Origin: a virus
Length of the DNA stretch: 23,134 nucleotides
Reading direction: 5' to 3' (one strand)
IMG/VR virus record: IMGVR_UViG_3300044678_000715
Location: 1 to 23,134 of that record
Shown here: in pieces, positions 3,628 through 22,165 of the stretch
Layout: every line of letters begins with the position of its first letter
Numbering within the stretch: the stretch's first letter is position 1
Translations under genes and position numbers: made by a program
Notes under the pieces: generated by a model
The model's input: the letters and a program-made list of their open reading frames with translations, nothing else
Database searches by the model: none
What the model was told of the DNA's origin: nothing

Positions 3628-3909
3628 CTACTCAGAAAGCCTGTATCCGATGGCGTGGAGGATCTTGGCGACATCACGCGCTGACGCCGTGATGGCTTCC
3701 TCGCAGATGTCCGGGAAGCAGTGGTGCATCGCTTCATGAATCTCCGTCTCCATGCGCTCGCGTCCTGACAGCCTGTCGTCGATCAGAACCTTGCGAGGCT
3801 TCTTGGGATCGTCGGGCATGTATGCCCATCCTGCGGCCGCTCCACGCAGGCGGCTGTACCGCCACAGGAGCCTGATGCCACGAATCGTGAAGTGGTGATC
3901 GCGTGGCAT
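3628..3909 (-). CDS. 93-aa HExxH metallopeptidase-like protein
   Basis: Start at ATG 3909, 22 nt after the preceding stop; in-frame upstream codons to 3987 overlap the previous gene and were rejected. There is no clear Shine-Dalgarno sequence. After a short basic N-terminus (RGIRLLWRYSRLRG) the protein reads KVLIDDRLSGRERMETEIHE and then AMHHCFPD, giving the zincin motif HEAMH (about residues 57-61). It ends EEAITASARDVAKILHAIGY, where the first Glu pair could supply a third metal ligand. Small phage proteins with 'IxIDxRLxGxxxLExxIHExxHxxF' are known but uncharacterised. At 93 residues it is far smaller than a typical secreted peptidase; it may be a minimal peptidase or a metal-binding structural piece. 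The motif is clear; activity and target are unknown. Confidence 0.7.
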   Translation of the reverse strand: MPRDHHFTIRGIRLLWRYSRLRGAAAGWAYMPDDPKKPRKVLIDDRLSGRERMETEIHEAMHHCFPDICEEAITASARDVAKILHAIGYRLSE

Positions 3910-3931
3910 TTGTATAGTGTGGCCCGGTCGC

Positions 3932-4282
3932 CTACTGGGAGTCAATAGGTTTTTCGCCAGCAGGAAGGCCAAGAAACTTAGTGCCAAACTCGTTCATCGC
4001 CTGCTGGCGCTGCTTGCATCCGCAGTCTTTGATGCCCACAGCAGACGCGATTGCCTGCACGCGGTCTTTTGTGATCCCCACAGCGTCGAGTCCAGCGGCG
4101 ACCATGTCGCCAAGGCCGGGCGACGGCGGTTCATCTATGGAATAATCCCCTTCGATCACTGAGTAAACGCAATGCGTGTCGGTTCTCTTTATCTCGACAA
4201 TAACATCGCCCGCATTAAGAAATCGGAACGCCTCCTCCTTTTCGCACTCACACAAGTAGCATTCCAGAGTCAAGGTTTTCAT
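3932..4282 (-). CDS. Small cysteine-motif protein (GLGD...CGC-RQ-N), unknown role
   Basis: A 116-aa protein from ATG 4282, coupled to the upstream gene by ATGA (4279-4282); the longer frame to 4321 was rejected for that reason. The N-terminus MKTLTLECYLCECEKEEAFR carries three cysteines (CxxCxC). The C-terminal half, GLGDMVAAGLDAVGITKDRV followed by KDCGCKQRQQAMNEFG, fits a recurrent small phage motif 'GLGD-x-V...GIT...CGCxxRQxxxN'. The five clustered cysteines could bind zinc. No enzyme signature is present. It lies between the candidate receptor-binding protein and the HExxH protein, so a tail or host-interaction role is possible but unproven. Confidence 0.6.
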   Translation of the reverse strand: MKTLTLECYLCECEKEEAFRFLNAGDVIVEIKRTDTHCVYSVIEGDYSIDEPPSPGLGDMVAAGLDAVGITKDRVQAIASAVGIKDCGCKQRQQAMNEFGTKFLGLPAGEKPIDSQ

Positions 4283-15830: not shown

Positions 15831-16021
15831 TTCATCCTCTTCTTTCCTTGCGGCTGAATGGCCCGCTCTGCCCGCTCCTCGACAGTGGCCACTTCGAAGT
15901 CTCGGCTCTCGACCTCTTCGATGAGCCGTCGAGCGATCAAGACGCGGGCCATCCCGTCGCTCCAGTCAAACTCTTGACCGGCCTTGTATCCGCCAAATGG
16001 CTTGATGACCCTAATCTTCAT
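15827..16021 (-). CDS. 64-aa head-tail region protein, unknown
   Basis: Start ATG 16021 and stop 15827 are both in ATGA overlaps with the neighbours, so it is surely translated as part of the operon. MKIRVIKPFGGYKAGQEFDW followed by SDGMARVLIARRLIEEVE is a small beta-hairpin plus helix pattern ('K-x-GY-x-x-GQ...G-x-A-x-x-LI-x-RR-x-A/I-E') common just before gp6-like adaptors in phages. The tail after residue 40 is highly charged (VEERAERAIQPQGKKRMK). Its function is not established. Confidence 0.65.
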   Translation of the reverse strand: MKIRVIKPFGGYKAGQEFDWSDGMARVLIARRLIEEVESRDFEVATVEERAERAIQPQGKKRMK

Positions 16022-16743
16022 TTTACGATTCCCCAGGCCTTCTCATGCGGCTTGCACTCGCTCCAGTAGTCAGTCGTGTGCTGCTGCACCTTGCCGCTGG
16101 GATCCTGTCGGCTGGGCCAGGTGATCATCAGTTCGGCGTGGCCGATGCTGATCTGGGTCGCCAGGCCTAGGGTGTTCCCGGCCTTGGCCCAGGCCCTCCA
16201 CATGTGGATGTCTTCGTCGATGTGACCGCCCGTGAACTCGCCTTGCTCGTTGGCGTGGGCCAGAAACCAGGGCTTCTGAACCTTCTTGAGCGCGGATGTT
16301 CGAAACAGCGTGCATCCGAAGTGGGCTGTCTCGACCGGCTGCACGATCTTGCCGAACCAATCGTCCTCAACGGTTGTCTGATCTTCCGGCTTCACGCCCG
16401 GCACGGCGAACATAACCGCGTTGCTCTCCCGCTTTTGCTGCAGCGGCGCAATAGCGTCCATCCCGGAGTAGTAGAGGAGCGTCATGAGCGCCTCGACCGT
16501 CCGAGACGTAAAGATGCTGTCGAAGTCGATGGTCAGGATTACGTCATAGTCGTTGATGACGGTCTCCATCGACCTCTGCAAACACTGCCCCCAAAACGCC
16601 CCTGAGTGTTTGATGAGGGGGATTCTGTGCGGCGTCAGCGCCTGAGAGACGCAGAAGAAATTATCAGTGAAGCCGAGGCGAGGCGTACTCATTAGAGCAA
16701 CCACCTTCGCCTCGGCTTCACACTGTCCGACACGCAGCATCAT
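16018..16743 (-). CDS. GT-A-like glycosyltransferase inside the head gene cluster
   Basis: A 241-aa protein from ATG 16743, with AAGGAG upstream in the stem of a hairpin. AKVVALMSTPRLGFTDNFFC near 12-31 is the first strand and nucleotide-binding turn. DYDVILTIDFDSIFTSRTVE near 65-84 holds a DxD motif (D73, D75). AHFGCTLFRTSALKKV near 140-155 and GGHIDEDIHMWRAWAKAG near 172-189 are the acceptor/catalytic blocks (E177-D178). GHAELMITWPS follows. Together these fit an inverting GT-A family 2-like enzyme that transfers sugar from a nucleotide-sugar. No membrane segment is seen. Placed between the decoration-like and adaptor genes, it could modify a capsid or neck protein, or the host surface. The fold call is good; donor and acceptor are unknown. 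Confidence 0.75.
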   Translation of the reverse strand: MMLRVGQCEAEAKVVALMSTPRLGFTDNFFCVSQALTPHRIPLIKHSGAFWGQCLQRSMETVINDYDVILTIDFDSIFTSRTVEALMTLLYYSGMDAIAPLQQKRESNAVMFAVPGVKPEDQTTVEDDWFGKIVQPVETAHFGCTLFRTSALKKVQKPWFLAHANEQGEFTGGHIDEDIHMWRAWAKAGNTLGLATQISIGHAELMITWPSRQDPSGKVQQHTTDYWSECKPHEKAWGIVK

Positions 16744-17282: not shown

Positions 17283-18623
17283 TCACGAAGCGGCAGACCG
17301 GAGGGCGACCACGGGGCCAGCCTCGCTGTTGCTGCCAAGAGAGTGGTGGTTCACATCGAAACGCATGGTGCCCTGCAGGAGCAGTTGATCTGTGGTGGCG
17401 TACACCTGATCAAACAGTCGGACAGAGAAGTCGCGACGGCGGGCGTAGATGCTGGACAGGCTCATGTTGCCGAACAGCACCTTGACCTTGTTGGCATCGG
17501 CGCCGAGCGTGCTGTTGAGAACATGCACCATCCGGACTGGGTAGCCGAGGAACGACTCGCCAGCGTCACCGCCGAGGTTATCGACCGTGTTGCCGCCAGC
17601 GGCGTACTTCAGACGGCTGATGCTCGCGGCGTAACCGGCTGGCGAGATGTACCAAGCGGCACCGGCCCGAGCGTACAGCGGCAACTTGCCGATGACCCCG
17701 AGGAAGTCCTCGATGTCGAGGGTTTCAAAGGCCGTGTTGCCAGAGATCGCCGTCGATACGCTCGCGGTGTGCGTGCCGTCGTTGATCTTGTTCACGATGC
17801 CGTTGATTCCGCCGAAGCCGCTGGTCCCGTCGCCCAGCCACCCGCAGGTGTCGATTTTGTAGGCCAGCGAAGTTGCAAATTCCTGGGCTACGCTGTCTGC
17901 CAAGGACACCAGAGCGTCCTCGACAACTTCCGAAGACATCCGGCAACCCACGGCCAACTTTTTGGCAACGAGGCTGACGTTTGCGTAGGTCGGCTCGCTC
18001 TCCGTCACCGCAGAGCCTTCGCCCACGAAGTAGGCCGTGGTGCCCGAAAGCCGCTTCGGGATCACCATCGTGTCGCGGCTCATGTTCACGCTCTCGGCGG
18101 CGCCGGGGAACGTGCCATAGGTCTCAACGAGGCGGATCACGCGGCTCGCGAACTCTTCGGGGACGAGAGCGCCACCCGTCGAGTTGCTGTTTTCGCCAAG
18201 GGCACGGCCCTCGACGCCATGGTCTCGGCACCACCGGAGGTCATCCTCGTTGCGGAACGCCGTGGCACGAAGCCAGCGGCCGCAGCGGTAGGCCGACTCG
18301 ACGGCATCGGGGCCGTCGTTGAAGGCCCGGAGCGTGGTGTGATGCGGGTGGATGGCCCGGATCTCGACCTTCTTCGGCTCCTCGGCAGCAACCGGAGCGG
18401 CCGGGGCGGGAGCAGCCCGCTCGACCACAGCGCGGAGTTCCGATTCCTTGGCAGCGAGACGCTGCTCAAACTCAAGGTCCGACTTCACGGTGTCGGCCTC
18501 GTCCGTCAGACGACGGAGTTCGGTGGTTTGCTCTTCCGACCGCTCCTCGCAGTCAGCGAGTTCGTTCAGCCGGGCGGCAATCGCAGCAGCGCGATCCTGG
18601 AGACGCTTGAGATTCGAGGCCAT
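17283..18623 (-). CDS. Major capsid protein, HK97 fold
   Basis: A 446-aa protein. ATG 18623 is chosen because AAGGAG lies 10 nt upstream and a helical delta domain follows at once; the frame stays open to 18863 but that part has no phage-like sequence. Residues 1-70 form a charged coiled coil (scaffolding delta domain), then an Ala/Pro linker (71-80). The mature core begins near 95-140. GGALVPEEFASRVIRLVETY (150-169) is the signature N-arm/E-loop entry of the HK97 capsid family. AYFVGEGSAVTESEPTYANV and AKKLAVGCRMSSEVVEDALV follow, then the A-domain with GTSGFGGINGIVN and AAWYISPAGYA. The prohead protease presumably cuts off the delta domain, as in HK97. Confidence 0.95.
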   Translation of the reverse strand: MASNLKRLQDRAAAIAARLNELADCEERSEEQTTELRRLTDEADTVKSDLEFEQRLAAKESELRAVVERAAPAPAAPVAAEEPKKVEIRAIHPHHTTLRAFNDGPDAVESAYRCGRWLRATAFRNEDDLRWCRDHGVEGRALGENSNSTGGALVPEEFASRVIRLVETYGTFPGAAESVNMSRDTMVIPKRLSGTTAYFVGEGSAVTESEPTYANVSLVAKKLAVGCRMSSEVVEDALVSLADSVAQEFATSLAYKIDTCGWLGDGTSGFGGINGIVNKINDGTHTASVSTAISGNTAFETLDIEDFLGVIGKLPLYARAGAAWYISPAGYAASISRLKYAAGGNTVDNLGGDAGESFLGYPVRMVHVLNSTLGADANKVKVLFGNMSLSSIYARRRDFSVRLFDQVYATTDQLLLQGTMRFDVNHHSLGSNSEAGPVVALRSAAS

Positions 18624-18799
18624 TTGGCTATTGCTCCTTGTCTGAGCCAGCCAAACGCGAATAGCGGCGGCTGGCGGTGTAAGTCCCGCAAGCACGCCGC
18701 GACAAGAATCCTCAAGTCGCTCGCACTGCACTTCGCGAAATCCATCGCGAAGCAATATGTCTACCTGTAGCCTAACGAGGCGGAGCGCTAGCGTGCAAG
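18624..18799 (-). promoter_or_regulatory. 176-nt leader of the major capsid gene with hairpins
   Basis: This is the only sizeable gap in the window. On the transcript, CTTCGCGA pairs perfectly with TCGCGAAG around TGGATT (18752-18731). TTGGCT (18654-18649) pairs with AGCCAA (18629-18624), with the capsid AAGGAG in the 19-nt loop. A competing stem GCCAGCC/GGCTGGC uses 18646-18652 and 18669-18675. No T-run follows the 8-bp hairpin, so it is not a usual terminator. No convincing -35/-10 promoter was found. A role in mRNA processing, stability or setting capsid output is plausible. Confidence 0.45.
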
Positions 18800-19093
18800 T
18801 CAGTCGGCGGGGCCGCCCTCGCCCTCGTATGTCACGTTGACTGCCTTTGCTGCGACTCCCCACTTTTTGAGGAACTCAACTACGTCCTCATACAGCGGGC
18901 CAAGCCTGTTCCCGTGCGTGATCACAAACTTTTCAAGATATTCGTCAAGAACCCTCTGCGACGAAAACTCGCTGCTGATCATCTTATAGATGTCTGTGTT
19001 TTGGTCGCCGTCAGGCATTTCTACCATCCAGAGCGGGTATCCGTCAGACACCCACGCAACCCATCCATTTCCAGCAATGTGTTCGCCTGTCAT
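18800..19093 (-). CDS. 97-aa hypothetical protein
   Basis: ATG 19093 overlaps the stop of the upstream 525-aa gene as ATGA, so it is translationally coupled. The sequence MTGEHIAGNGWVAWVSDGYP LWMVEM has a strand-rich, aromatic start. A helical middle follows (SSQRVLDEYLEKFVITHGN, VVEFLKKWGVAA), and an acidic Gly-rich end. No family is recognised and no motif suggests enzymatic activity. It is the last gene before the capsid leader, so it may help head assembly or partner with the metallopeptidase-like protein, but this rests on coupling alone. Confidence 0.55.
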   Translation of the reverse strand: MTGEHIAGNGWVAWVSDGYPLWMVEMPDGDQNTDIYKMISSEFSSQRVLDEYLEKFVITHGNRLGPLYEDVVEFLKKWGVAAKAVNVTYEGEGGPAD

Positions 19094-20667
19094 CTGTGGA
19101 GCATTCCCGATAAAAATGCGAGTGTCAAATTGTAGTGCCTGCGGTGTTTTTTCCTAAACGACACCGGATCTTCGTACAGGCGCTGCACGCCCATCGTAAC
19201 TACTTCAGTTGCGCCCGTTGCGTTTCCGTTCTCGAAATCGCAGTAGTCGCTGCAGTACCCCAGATTGCTCCCGGTCTTTCCAGGAACCTTGTACCCAAGA
19301 TACCGACTTCTCTGTGAACTGTATTGCACCTTTCGCAAAGTTGGGTTTTGCGACAGCAACTCGGCAACCCGCGTGTCGTAGTCATCCTTGATTGCCGCGA
19401 TTGCTCTATTTCCTGCAGCAGACCCGTCTCCATAGTGAAGCCCGTGGGCAACCTCGTGAACTACGACAGCCTTGCTTGTGTGGTATTCGGCGTGCTTTCC
19501 GGAAGTTCCGTGTCGTGCCGACTTTGTCAAGTGGTCGTAGTCAGCGCCGGACTTCTTGACGAGTCGCACTTTCACAGCGGAGAGTGCGGCTTGGTGAACT
19601 CGCGAAAGCGAGGAGTTGAGGAAATTGTATGCGTCCCCTACGTTTTCACGAAAGGAATCTCTCCTTTTTGACGACTTCACGTCAATGGATATCTGGCTCT
19701 TCGGGTTGACCGTTGCAAGGCCTCCGCCATTCTTCGACACAAACTCGCTGACCGCCCCGTGAGCCTCCCTCTGCCTCTGCGACTCAAGCCTTCTGGCAAT
19801 GTCGTGAGCGTCGTTTATGTCTTTGTTGTATTTAATCGCCTCATTGGCGTGCTGCTGCGCTTCTTGGAGGAGTGTTTCTTTGGCTGCTCCAGAATACTTC
19901 TGAGCCTCCAGTCTTTTTTGGCGCGCCTGATCGTTGAGCCAGTCTCTGTTGTCGGACATTGCCTTGATAGCAGACCTTGGGCCCTCAAGTCGCGTTTCGT
20001 ATCGGGCCTCAATCTCGTCCAGGCTTTTGTGCAGGCTATCGAATTCTTTCTTGTTTTCCCTCACTGCGGAGTCTACCGACGACTCGCCTGGTAGTTTTTG
20101 GCGAGCAGGCTGCGGCGCTTCGACGATCTCCAGTTTCTTGTTCGCCTCCTTGATGCGGATCTTCTGCAGCATCTCGGAGCGTTTCTTGTCAGCGGCCTCT
20201 TGGGCAGCCTTGCGCTCGGCGGCGTCACGTTCGCCCTTCTGGGCCTTCCGCTCGGCGGCAGCGCGGCGAAGTTCGTCGATCTTGGCCTGCTTTTCCTTGG
20301 CCCGCTTCCGCTCGACCTTTGCGGCCTCGCGCTGCGGCTTCGTAGCGATGGACTTCGCCTTGTCGGCGGCTTCTTTCTTGGCCTTCTTCGCGGCGGCTTT
20401 CTCTTTCAGTGCCTTGGCGCGAGCGAAGTCATCCTTGGCGTTCGCGCCCTTGAGAGCGCCGCCCTGCGAGAGCGGCCTCTGCGGGATGCCGTCTTCTTTG
20501 GCGCAGTTGTTCCCCGCCTTGAAGCCGCCAGAACCAGTCCCACACCCAGCAGACGGCCCCATCTTGGCAGGGCGGCCGGTTGTTCTGACTTTCTTGCGCT
20601 TCTTCGGCTTTCTGGCACGCTCTTCGAACCGCGCCAGCGCCGCGATGAGGTCAGCGAGTTCGTCCAT
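19090..20667 (-). CDS. Coiled-coil (scaffold-like) protein with C-terminal HExxH metallopeptidase-like domain
   Basis: A 525-aa protein from ATG 20667, overlapping the protease gene by 17 nt. Residues 15-30 are basic. GCGTGSGGFKAGNNCAKEDG (41-60) is a Gly/Cys motif I have seen at the start of other phage head proteins. Residues 80-180 form a long Lys/Ala/Glu coiled coil, and 200-305 a second one. The C-terminal domain (about 320-525) holds VVVHEVAHGLHYGDGSAAGN with zincin motif HEVAH (404-408). TEVVTMGVQRLYEDPVSFRK follows, where Glu488 is the likely third ligand. The 'TE-x-x-(S/T)-MG-x-x-x-LYEDP' ending recurs in minor head proteins. A scaffold gene is often found in this place. Whether it cleaves head proteins, or whether the fold is structural, is unknown. 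GC falls sharply in the C-terminal half. Confidence 0.7.
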   Translation of the reverse strand: MDELADLIAALARFEERARKPKKRKKVRTTGRPAKMGPSAGCGTGSGGFKAGNNCAKEDGIPQRPLSQGGALKGANAKDDFARAKALKEKAAAKKAKKEAADKAKSIATKPQREAAKVERKRAKEKQAKIDELRRAAAERKAQKGERDAAERKAAQEAADKKRSEMLQKIRIKEANKKLEIVEAPQPARQKLPGESSVDSAVRENKKEFDSLHKSLDEIEARYETRLEGPRSAIKAMSDNRDWLNDQARQKRLEAQKYSGAAKETLLQEAQQHANEAIKYNKDINDAHDIARRLESQRQREAHGAVSEFVSKNGGGLATVNPKSQISIDVKSSKRRDSFRENVGDAYNFLNSSLSRVHQAALSAVKVRLVKKSGADYDHLTKSARHGTSGKHAEYHTSKAVVVHEVAHGLHYGDGSAAGNRAIAAIKDDYDTRVAELLSQNPTLRKVQYSSQRSRYLGYKVPGKTGSNLGYCSDYCDFENGNATGATEVVTMGVQRLYEDPVSFRKKHRRHYNLTLAFLSGMLHR

Positions 20668-22165
20668 GAGCAGCCGTCTCCAGTGCTTTTGCCTTCAGCC
20701 TGGCCGCCTCTGCCGCCGGATCGACGCTCCGCTGGCCCTGAGAAACGAGCCGCTCCTCGGGAATCACCCAGAGTTTGCAGATCGCGTTCGGATCAATGGC
20801 CCCCTCAACGACTTCGCAGGCGCCGTTCTCAAAGAAGATGCAGTTCTCGCACCGCATCCCCTGCTTGGCGAACGGGTTCTCGGTCATGTAGTGGGCGCCG
20901 TCCGGGCCTTCCTGCGGCCACGGCCCGTTCTCGACCGCGATCTGCTCGATGGCTTCGTAGAGGGCGAAGTTCGCAGGAGAGAGCGATTCCATCGGCTCTT
21001 CCTCGGCCCGCTGCTCAGCGCCTTCTTCTGGCAACTCGCGGCTCATGGCGGCCGCCTTTCGCGCAGACCAGTTCTTCGCTGGCGTGCCGCCCCAGAGGAG
21101 CCACGCAACGAAGCCGGGCTTTTCCTCGCCAGCCTTGTCCCATCCCGGTGACTTGCTGGCCTTCTCATGCCGGGCGAACCATGCGTTCATCTCGACAACG
21201 TGGTCTTCCGTCAACTCCTCGCGCCTCGCAATCTTGTTGGCGCGGGCCACGGTTTCCGGCTTCAAGCCGTCCCCAGACTTCCCTTCTTCGTGCAGCCGCA
21301 GGCCGCGCTTGGCAGCGGCCGCCATGCCGGAAGTCGGCTTGAGGCCGACAGCCCGCTGGTCGATGAACATCGGCGCCTCGCCCATAATGTTGCTGGCAGA
21401 CACCAGTTCGCTCATCTTCTTGGCAACGAAGTAGTCGGACTCTTCCCAGACGCCGTCTTCGAAGTCGTACTTTCGCACCAGCGCTGCCGGATCCTCTGGG
21501 GTCGCCTCAATCGGCTCCTCCGAGTAGTCGCCAATCGAGCCGTCGTTCATGACGTACTCGACGCGCCCCACGCCGCCGTCCCACGCAACAAACTCGCCAG
21601 CCGAATACATGGCACGCTTGGCCATGTCGAGCGCCCGTCTGCTCACGAACGTCTCGGTGGCTGGGTACGCTGGCCGCAGGACTGGGCCGACATCGAACAA
21701 GCCGTCGAAGTCGGTGATTTCCCTGAGTTGGCGGCCGTCCTGCATCCGGCTCCACCGCTCACCAGCACCCTTGACCTTGAAGGCGAATGAACTTCCGCGC
21801 ACGTCGCCTCTTTCGATGGCCTCAACAACGTCAGCCCGGCTCTCCGGGGCGTCGATTTCGTACCGCAGGCCGCGCTCATCGACAGACAGCCGCAGCGTCC
21901 CTGCGGACTCACGGCCCAGCAGGAACATCGGCTCATGGTTGTAGAGAGCGACAACGTCGGTGCCGCGCTTGATGACGTTGTCAAAAGCGCCTGGCGAAAT
22001 CCGCTCCACGAACCCGCCCAAGTCCTGACTGTCGCTGCCAAACAAGGCCGCGTAGCCGCGAATTACGACTTTCTTTTTGCCTGTCTTGTCGCAGAGGCAC
22101 CGCTCGACGGCGGTGTCGCACTCTACAAGTCGGCGCTCAATGTCTTCTCGACTCTGTCCGTCCAT
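20651..22165 (-). CDS. HK97-type prohead protease with three C-terminal accessory domains
   Basis: A 504-aa protein, more than twice the usual ~200 aa. ATG 22165 has GGAGG 10 nt upstream and overlaps the portal gene. The protease (about 30-190) shows VVIRGYAALFGSDSQDLGGF, ISPGAF, NHEP (His77), GSSFAF (Ser126) and DVGPVLRPAYPATE, which are the S78-family blocks. Residues about 188-260 (GEFVAWDGGVGRVEYV...TPEDPAALVR) look like a small SH3-like domain found in phage proteins. Residues about 280-375 (RANKIARREELTEDHV...AWFARHE...WLLWGG) match an uncharacterised phage helical domain. Residues 437-470 hold Cys439, 442, 450 and 463 (CENCIFFENGACEVVEGAID PNAIC), a likely metal-binding or Fe-S-like end. 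The protease matures the capsid; the extra domains have no known role. Confidence 0.9.
   Translation of the reverse strand: MDGQSREDIERRLVECDTAVERCLCDKTGKKKVVIRGYAALFGSDSQDLGGFVERISPGAFDNVIKRGTDVVALYNHEPMFLLGRESAGTLRLSVDERGLRYEIDAPESRADVVEAIERGDVRGSSFAFKVKGAGERWSRMQDGRQLREITDFDGLFDVGPVLRPAYPATETFVSRRALDMAKRAMYSAGEFVAWDGGVGRVEYVMNDGSIGDYSEEPIEATPEDPAALVRKYDFEDGVWEESDYFVAKKMSELVSASNIMGEAPMFIDQRAVGLKPTSGMAAAAKRGLRLHEEGKSGDGLKPETVARANKIARREELTEDHVVEMNAWFARHEKASKSPGWDKAGEEKPGFVAWLLWGGTPAKNWSARKAAAMSRELPEEGAEQRAEEEPMESLSPANFALYEAIEQIAVENGPWPQEGPDGAHYMTENPFAKQGMRCENCIFFENGACEVVEGAIDPNAICKLWVIPEERLVSQGQRSVDPAAEAARLKAKALETAAHGRTR

What the first reader, a model, noticed from the sequence alone, without database searches (positions are those of the whole stretch)
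19090..20667. Scaffold-position coiled coil fused to a zinc-metallopeptidase-like domain, next to a serine-type prohead protease
The protein encoded between protease and capsid genes has two long charged coiled coils (residues 80-180, 200-305) and a C-terminal HEVAHG domain with a possible third ligand Glu488. A scaffold normally lacks catalytic domains and is removed by the serine protease encoded just upstream. Here the head could carry two independent proteases, or a self-removing scaffold. The domain ending TE...MG...LYEDP recurs in minor head proteins, so it may be an unrecognised virion metallopeptidase family.
Basis: partly seen in the sequence, partly recalled or inferred. Interest (0 to 1): 0.62.

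Follow-up and report, generated by a model that had tools for sequence, protein, structure and literature searches.

The report
Swappable enzyme cassette in phage head
A phage gene next to the capsid gene encodes a conserved carrier fused to an interchangeable enzyme (here a predicted zinc protease) plus a small acidic partner protein, and near-identical phages have swapped this pair for other enzymes, so it looks like a weapon carried in the phage head rather than a part used to build the head.

Summary
Window 19090-20667 (-) encodes a 525-aa protein between an S78 prohead protease and an HK97-type capsid gene, with charged helical stretches and a C-terminal zincin (HEVAH 404-408, E488). AlphaFold gives a confident domain (pLDDT 92.6) whose best solved-structure match is anthrax lethal factor (weak, E 0.04); HExxH and the Glu survive in almost all relatives.

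The scaffold reading fails. Only the first ~180 residues (carrier) are conserved. In phages whose flanking DNA is 92-99.8% identical, the rest of the protein is replaced as one block by a different zincin subtype, an ADP-ribosyltransferase-like protein or a kinase-like/ART protein. The small acidic gene immediately downstream (18800-19093) is replaced with it. Several independent exchanges were found. A head-maturation enzyme could not be exchanged this way. The best reading is a polymorphic, head-associated effector with a cognate inhibitor/immunity-like partner, as in MuF toxins but on a non-MuF carrier. The same zincin occurs on MuF proteins.

The carrier contains a motif, CGTGxGGFxxGNxCA, that recurs in >=119 viral contig stretches, usually between portal proteins and ART, zeta-toxin, 2H or GNAT domains. 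Virion packaging, injection, toxicity and immunity are inferred.

The parts
20119..20667 (-). Carrier module, aa 1-183: basic, Ala/Lys/Glu-rich helix; conserved across all effector types; fused in frame to the S78 protease C-terminus in L012-L014
   Evidence: Alignment A1 of 13 relatives; 92-98% identical to L003/L004/L010
20488..20547 (-). Junction motif GCGTGSGGFKAGNNCAKEDG (aa 41-60) with two invariant Cys
   Evidence: Invariant in A1; CGTGxGGFxxGNxCA in >=119 viral stretches and 1 bacterial genome contig
20140..20172 (-). Conserved block MLQKIRIKEAN (aa 166-176), left border of the swapped cassette
19768..20118 (-). Second helical segment (aa 184-300), part of the swapped cassette
   Evidence: No DNA similarity to L004 in this segment while flanks are 97% identical
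19093..19767 (-). C-terminal zincin domain (aa 301-525), lethal-factor-like fold
   Evidence: AlphaFold pLDDT 92.6; Foldseek PDB best hit anthrax lethal factor, prob 0.93, E 0.041; viral head/polyvalent proteins
19444..19458 (-). HEVAH (aa 404-408), predicted zinc-binding and catalytic motif
19204..19206 (-). E488, predicted third zinc ligand, in TEVVTMG
   Evidence: Invariant in A2 and A3
18800..19093 (-). 97-aa acidic protein (net charge -9), 4-nt overlap with the effector gene; swapped with it; predicted cognate inhibitor/immunity protein (alternative: loading partner)
   Evidence: no family or fold hit
18813..20131 (-). Extent of the swapped effector plus small-gene cassette relative to L003/L004
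   Evidence: blastn breakpoints 20120/20131 and 18812/18813
18769..18798 (-). Right border: TTGCAC-N18-TAGGCT, invariant hexamers with variable spacer; promoter-like element of the capsid gene
   Evidence: Alignment A9 of 15 phages; the generic sigma-70 scan does not flag it
17283..18623 (-). Major capsid protein with its own N-terminal helical (delta-like) segment
   Evidence: Pfam Phage_capsid 1.7e-29, TIGR01554 5.7e-49; start MASNLKRLQDR
20651..22165 (-). S78-family prohead protease, 504 aa, with long C-terminal extension

Best explanation
The 525-aa protein is a phage-head-associated polymorphic effector. Residues 1-180 (helical carrier plus the CGTGxGGFxxGNxCA motif) target it to the procapsid together with the S78 protease. 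The C-terminal 340 residues are an exchangeable payload, here a lethal-factor-like zinc peptidase that is most likely injected with the DNA and cleaves a target in the infected cell. The 97-aa acidic protein made from the overlapping downstream gene is its cognate partner, most likely an inhibitor/immunity protein protecting the producing cell or lysogen. Shown: gene order, carrier conservation, zincin fold prediction, swapping of effector plus partner between near-identical phages, co-segregation of partner type with effector type. Inferred: packaging, injection, enzymatic activity, target, immunity.
For: (1) Cassette swaps: window (zincin Z1) vs L004 (ART-like) is 96.7% identical up to carrier aa ~179 and 96.9% from the capsid promoter on, with nothing alignable between; L003 (zincin Z2) is similar. 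Other swaps to another class: L022(Z2)/L025(ART) 97.7/98.7%; L168(Z2)/L184(ART) 95.0/99.7%; L001(Z1)/L025(ART) 99.8% downstream; L044(Z1)/L017(ART) 91.8/93.8%; L036(kinase-ART)/L039(ART) 86.8-95.7/97.5%. (2) Each effector on the carrier is followed by a small acidic ORF, at about -4 to +9 nt. Partner identity is 53% within and 29% between effector types (0 of 2000 label shuffles reach this); capsid protein is 88 vs 86%. (3) Zincin model and lethal-factor-like fold, HExxH/Glu conserved. (4) The same zincin family sits on MuF head proteins, each with a small downstream ORF (L175, L177, L020). (5) Carrier fused to the S78 protease C-terminus in three contigs, which would place it inside the procapsid. 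(6) The junction motif links portal proteins to ART, zeta-toxin, 2H and GNAT domains in other phages. (7) Six of the 12 phage records searched, all above 31 kb, carry a tyrosine recombinase; the others are shorter fragments. (8) Precedents: T4 Alt, MuF toxins, polyvalent proteins (PMC5512222, PMC5576092).
Against: No experiment shows virion packaging, injection, toxicity or immunity. The partner proteins of zincin and ART cassettes share a common core, which is unusual for target-specific immunity proteins and fits an adaptor/chaperone too. L012 (kinase-ART as a separate ORF) has no small ORF of 60 aa or more before the capsid gene. Foldseek E-values against PDB are weak (0.04). ART and kinase labels rest mainly on motifs. 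The permutation test of co-segregation ignores relatedness, although capsid and carrier show little of the effect. No host genome was found.
Confidence: 0.74

Rival explanations
1. One reading: the protein is a scaffold that removes itself, or the head carries a second maturation protease.
For: Position between protease and capsid; charged helices; HExxH domain.
Against: Near-identical phages replace the peptidase by ART-like or kinase-like domains; the capsid ORF has its own N-terminal helical segment; one zincin relative (L027) has lost the first His.
Confidence: 0.05
2. Polyprotein-processing model: the zincin releases payload domains from the carrier, as proposed for metallopeptidases of polyvalent proteins, rather than attacking a host protein.
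For: Iyer et al. 2017 (PMC5512222) propose processing by zincins; the motif separates successive domains in other phages.
Against: In the window the zincin is the only predicted enzymatic domain on the polypeptide, so there is no other payload to release; ART and kinase versions have no zincin; the partner gene changes with the effector.
Confidence: 0.1
3. Same head-carried effector, but the 97-aa family is a loading chaperone/adaptor, or both chaperone and inhibitor, instead of an immunity protein.
For: Shared core W..W....LYEDA.xFL..WG across zincin and ART partners with a type-specific acidic N-terminal extension in the ART group; acidic partner against a basic carrier.
Against: An unrelated 63-aa protein occupies the slot in kinase-ART phages; MuF zincins also have small downstream ORFs, and the one compared (L020) is unrelated, the usual pattern of immunity genes.
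Confidence: 0.25
4. Anti-defence effector: the exchangeable enzymes disarm host immune systems at entry, and swapping tracks the defences of local hosts rather than competition between bacteria.
For: Swapping between near-identical phages; ART/zincin repertoire as in polyvalent proteins, several of which are predicted to target host defences (PMC5512222).
Against: Does not by itself explain the co-swapped partner gene; no target known.
Confidence: 0.3

Closest known systems
MuF polymorphic toxins of temperate phages (Jamet et al. 2017, PMC5576092)
   Same: Head-module protein with conserved N-terminus and exchangeable C-terminal enzyme (20% metallopeptidases, ARTs frequent); small ORF directly downstream (89.4% of MuF toxin genes); tyrosine recombinase in the longer records. 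The same zincin family is found on MuF proteins.
   Different: No MuF domain in the protein or in 12 phage records; the carrier is a basic helical protein between prohead protease and capsid, sometimes fused to the protease; swapping seen at nucleotide level.
Polyvalent proteins (Iyer et al. 2017, PMC5512222)
   Same: Phage head/portal-linked polypeptides carrying zincin, ART, 2H and related effector domains.
   Different: Usually one payload per protein here, cassette with its own partner gene, and a dedicated carrier.
Phage T4 Alt
   Same: ART packaged in the head and injected (PMC5512222).
   Different: Alt is not an exchangeable cassette and, from general knowledge, has no swapped partner gene.
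Lethal-factor-like (ATLF) zincins
   Same: HExxH plus downstream Glu; best solved-structure match.
   Different: Only 7-14% identity over the aligned parts; the window protein does not hit Pfam ATLF; a portal-fused protein with the same junction motif does (L042, E 1.7e-4, below the curated cut-off).

Membership tests
MuF polymorphic toxins | N-terminal MuF domain | tested here: not met
   No Pfam hit on the protein; PF04233 absent from 12 of 12 records
MuF polymorphic toxins | Variable C-terminal enzymatic domain on a conserved N-terminus | tested here: met
MuF polymorphic toxins | Small ORF (<150 aa) directly downstream | tested here: met
   Loci with the effector on the carrier; exception L012, effector on a separate ORF
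MuF polymorphic toxins | Encoded by temperate phages | tested here: inconclusive
   Tyrosine recombinase in 6 of 12 records, all six above 31 kb; not in any host genome
MuF polymorphic toxins | Toxicity neutralised by cognate immunity protein | not testable with these tools
   Needs expression assay
Lethal-factor-like zincin (ATLF) | HExxH plus downstream Glu ligand | tested here: met
Lethal-factor-like zincin (ATLF) | Fold match to lethal factor | tested here: inconclusive
   Ranks 1-19 of PDB are lethal factor, prob up to 0.94, but E >= 0.04 and TMq 0.38-0.48
Lethal-factor-like zincin (ATLF) | Match to Pfam ATLF model | tested here: not met
   No hit for the window protein
Phage scaffolding protein | Needed for assembly, so conserved as a whole among close relatives | tested here: not met
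   C-terminal two thirds exchanged between 92-99.8% identical backbones
Phage scaffolding protein | Present in procapsid, absent from virion | not testable with these tools
   Needs proteomics
Polyvalent proteins | Two or more unrelated enzymatic domains in one phage- or plasmid-transferred polypeptide | tested here: inconclusive
   Window protein has one enzymatic domain; kinase-ART relatives have two by motif

The most novel reading that the evidence does not exclude
CGTGxGGFxxGNxCA marks a general effector-junction module of phage heads: a short, virus-restricted element that tethers payload enzymes to portal, MuF or protease-linked carriers (and to each other, up to three copies per polypeptide) and directs packaging or release. 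The protease-capsid locus of this window would be one dedicated, cassette-swapping delivery system built on it, independent of MuF.
Probability: 0.35. Interest if true: 0.82.

Novelty: new variant of a known kind. Interest (0 to 1): 0.63.

Why it matters
If right, phage heads carry polymorphic effectors on at least one carrier other than MuF, with natural near-isogenic pairs (97% identical backbone, different enzyme plus partner) ready for testing what head-delivered enzymes do and whether their small neighbours are immunity proteins. The shared junction motif gives a sequence handle to find head-borne effectors in uncultured viruses, where profile searches see nothing. It also corrects a scaffold/maturation-protease annotation for such genes.

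Tried and rejected
Scaffold or self-removing scaffold: rejected by the swaps. HExxH as chance: not excluded by the motif alone (2.8% of shuffles), excluded by conservation and fold. Cultured phages: only one distant hit, Bacillus phage vB_BpsS-36 MuF protein. Searching the phage collection for the 24-aa motif gave nothing, but the low-complexity filter makes this inconclusive. No relative of the carrier in 84,980 bacterial/archaeal genomes; the motif occurs once, in Singulisphaera acidiphila, so the host is unknown. Fold and family searches of the 97-aa protein gave nothing, and its alignment was too divergent for a collection scan. ART1 profile against PDB: no ART hit; the kinase-ART profile matches the ART Vis weakly (E 0.008). 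The MuF-zincin's small neighbour in L020 is not homologous to the window's small protein. Literature search for the motif letters: no paper (short-string full-text search only).

Full report
What is in the window. The gene at 19090-20667 (minus strand) encodes 525 residues and lies between a 504-aa S78 prohead protease (20651-22165) and an HK97-type capsid gene (17283-18623), with a 97-aa gene (18800-19093) in between. The portal gene runs off the right end. No Pfam, NCBIfam or PHROGs family matches the 525-aa protein at a meaningful level. HExxH by itself occurs in 2.8% of shuffles of this protein, so the motif alone proves little. The capsid ORF has its own N-terminal helical segment, so an internal scaffold function is probably already provided (inference).

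Relatives are modular. Searches of viral contigs returned relatives that share only the first ~180 residues: a basic helical carrier with an invariant GCGTGxGGFxxGNxCAxEDG motif and a conserved MLQKIRxK block. Behind it sit four different payloads: zincin type Z1 (HE(V/I)AHG; window, L001, L024, L044, L163), zincin type Z2 (HEYGHA; L003, L005, L007, L022, L031, L037, L168), an ART-like protein with R, SS and EQE motifs invariant (L004, L011, L017, L025, L032, L039, and also L183, L184), and a kinase-like plus ART protein (L015, L018, L036, L041), whose profile weakly matches the ART Vis (E 0.008). In L012-L014 the carrier is the in-frame C-terminus of the S78 protease, and in L012 the payload is a separate ORF. 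The ART and kinase labels are motif-based.

Cassette swaps. Against L004, window DNA is 96.7% identical from the portal to position 20131, has no similarity from there to 18812, and is 96.9% identical afterwards; L003 gives 93.8% and 94.9-95.6% with breakpoints at 20120 and 18813. The exchanged block is the payload plus the 97-aa gene. The same happens in other lineages: L022/L025 (97.7 and 98.7%), L168/L184 (95.0 and 99.7%), L001/L025 (99.8% downstream), L044/L017 (91.8 and 93.8%), L036/L039 (86.8-95.7 and 97.5%). The borders are the MLQKIRxK block on the left and the capsid promoter-like element on the right. This rules out a required head-maturation role for the peptidase in this lineage.

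The small gene. Payloads on the carrier are followed, usually at -4 to +9 nt, by a small acidic ORF (net charge -6 to -23). Z1, Z2 and ART partners share a core (W, W, LY, FL, WG); ART partners have an extra ~55-aa acidic N-terminus, and kinase-ART phages have an unrelated 63-aa protein. Identity is 53% within and 29% between payload types (0 of 2000 label shuffles), against 88 and 86% for the capsid N-terminal region and 67 and 63% for the carrier (the shuffle test ignores relatedness). No fold or family is known for it. Immunity/inhibitor is the favoured reading; loading chaperone is the main rival.

The zincin. AlphaFold on aa 301-525 gives pLDDT 92.6 and pTM 0.90, with HExxH and E488 in separate helices. 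The first 19 PDB matches are anthrax lethal factor (best E 0.041, prob 0.93). In viral models it resembles phage head morphogenesis, 'lethal factor', virion RNA polymerase and polyvalent proteins. HExxH and Glu are kept in 10 of 11 aligned carrier zincins, the exception being L027 (LEYGH). The same domain sits on MuF head proteins (Bacillus phage vB_BpsS-36, with a PF04233 hit; L175 and L177 by sequence inspection) and on the related L176, each followed by a small ORF.

A junction motif. It occurs in 123 distinct ORFs, 11 of them with two or three copies. Upstream of it, 19 and 17 of 59 segments match the two portal families (some may match both), with single S78 and MuF hits. Downstream are ART-PolyVal (8 of 74), ADPrib_exo_Tox (6), zeta toxin (3), topoisomerase IB, 2H and GNAT. 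I found no description of it in the paper library. Whether it anchors, packages or releases payloads is unknown.

Biology. Tyrosine recombinases are present in 6 of 12 phage records, all above 31 kb; PF04233 (MuF) is absent from all 12, while portal is found in all 12. With the MuF-toxin and polyvalent-protein precedents (PMC5576092, PMC5512222), the best model is a head-delivered polymorphic effector with a cognate partner on a non-MuF carrier. Packaging, injection, enzymatic activity, target and immunity are inferred, not shown. It is a new variant of a known kind.

Noticed in passing
window 18621-18802 (-), and A9 relatives: Between the cassette and the capsid ATG: invariant TTGCAC-N~18-TAGGCTACAG (promoter-like, spacer variable) and a ~150-nt leader predicted to fold into hairpins with covariation (7 of 35 pairs changed on both sides and kept); the last hairpin pairs the GGAGC ribosome-binding sequence. 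No Rfam match.
   Followed up: partly
L012:5206-6579, L013, L014: Carrier fused in frame to the C-terminus of the S78 protease in three contigs; in L012 the kinase-ART payload is a separate ORF without a small partner ORF of 60 aa or more.
   Followed up: partly
L042:4366-7323, L050:2146-4956: Portal proteins with the CGTG motif in a C-terminal extension followed by a lethal-factor-like zincin (L042, Pfam ATLF E 1.7e-4) or a possibly nuclease-like tail after a long PNASTK repeat (L050, tail named by eye; contig apparently from Singulisphaera acidiphila).
   Followed up: partly
window 3628-3987 (-): Small ORF with another HExxH (HEAMHHCFPDI...), resembling short zincin-like proteins of phages; no NCBIfam hit.
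   Followed up: no
window 20651-22165 (-), C-terminal third: Prohead protease extension with weak LPD22 similarity and a Cys-rich segment RCENCIFFENGACEVVEGAIDPNAICKLW (C..C, C, C), which looks like an iron-sulphur or metal-binding domain.
   Followed up: no
window 16018-16743 (-): Glycosyltransferase-like ORF (weak Pfam hit, E 0.004) inside the structural module, two genes after the capsid gene.
   Followed up: no
L027:688-2241: Zincin relative with HEYGH changed to LEYGH, a probably inactive payload or a sequencing error; its partner gene is kept.
   Followed up: no
L111, L122, L153, L082, L067, L099: Polypeptides with two or three copies of the CGTG motif, successive copies separated by different domains, including ART-PolyVal-like ones.
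   Followed up: partly
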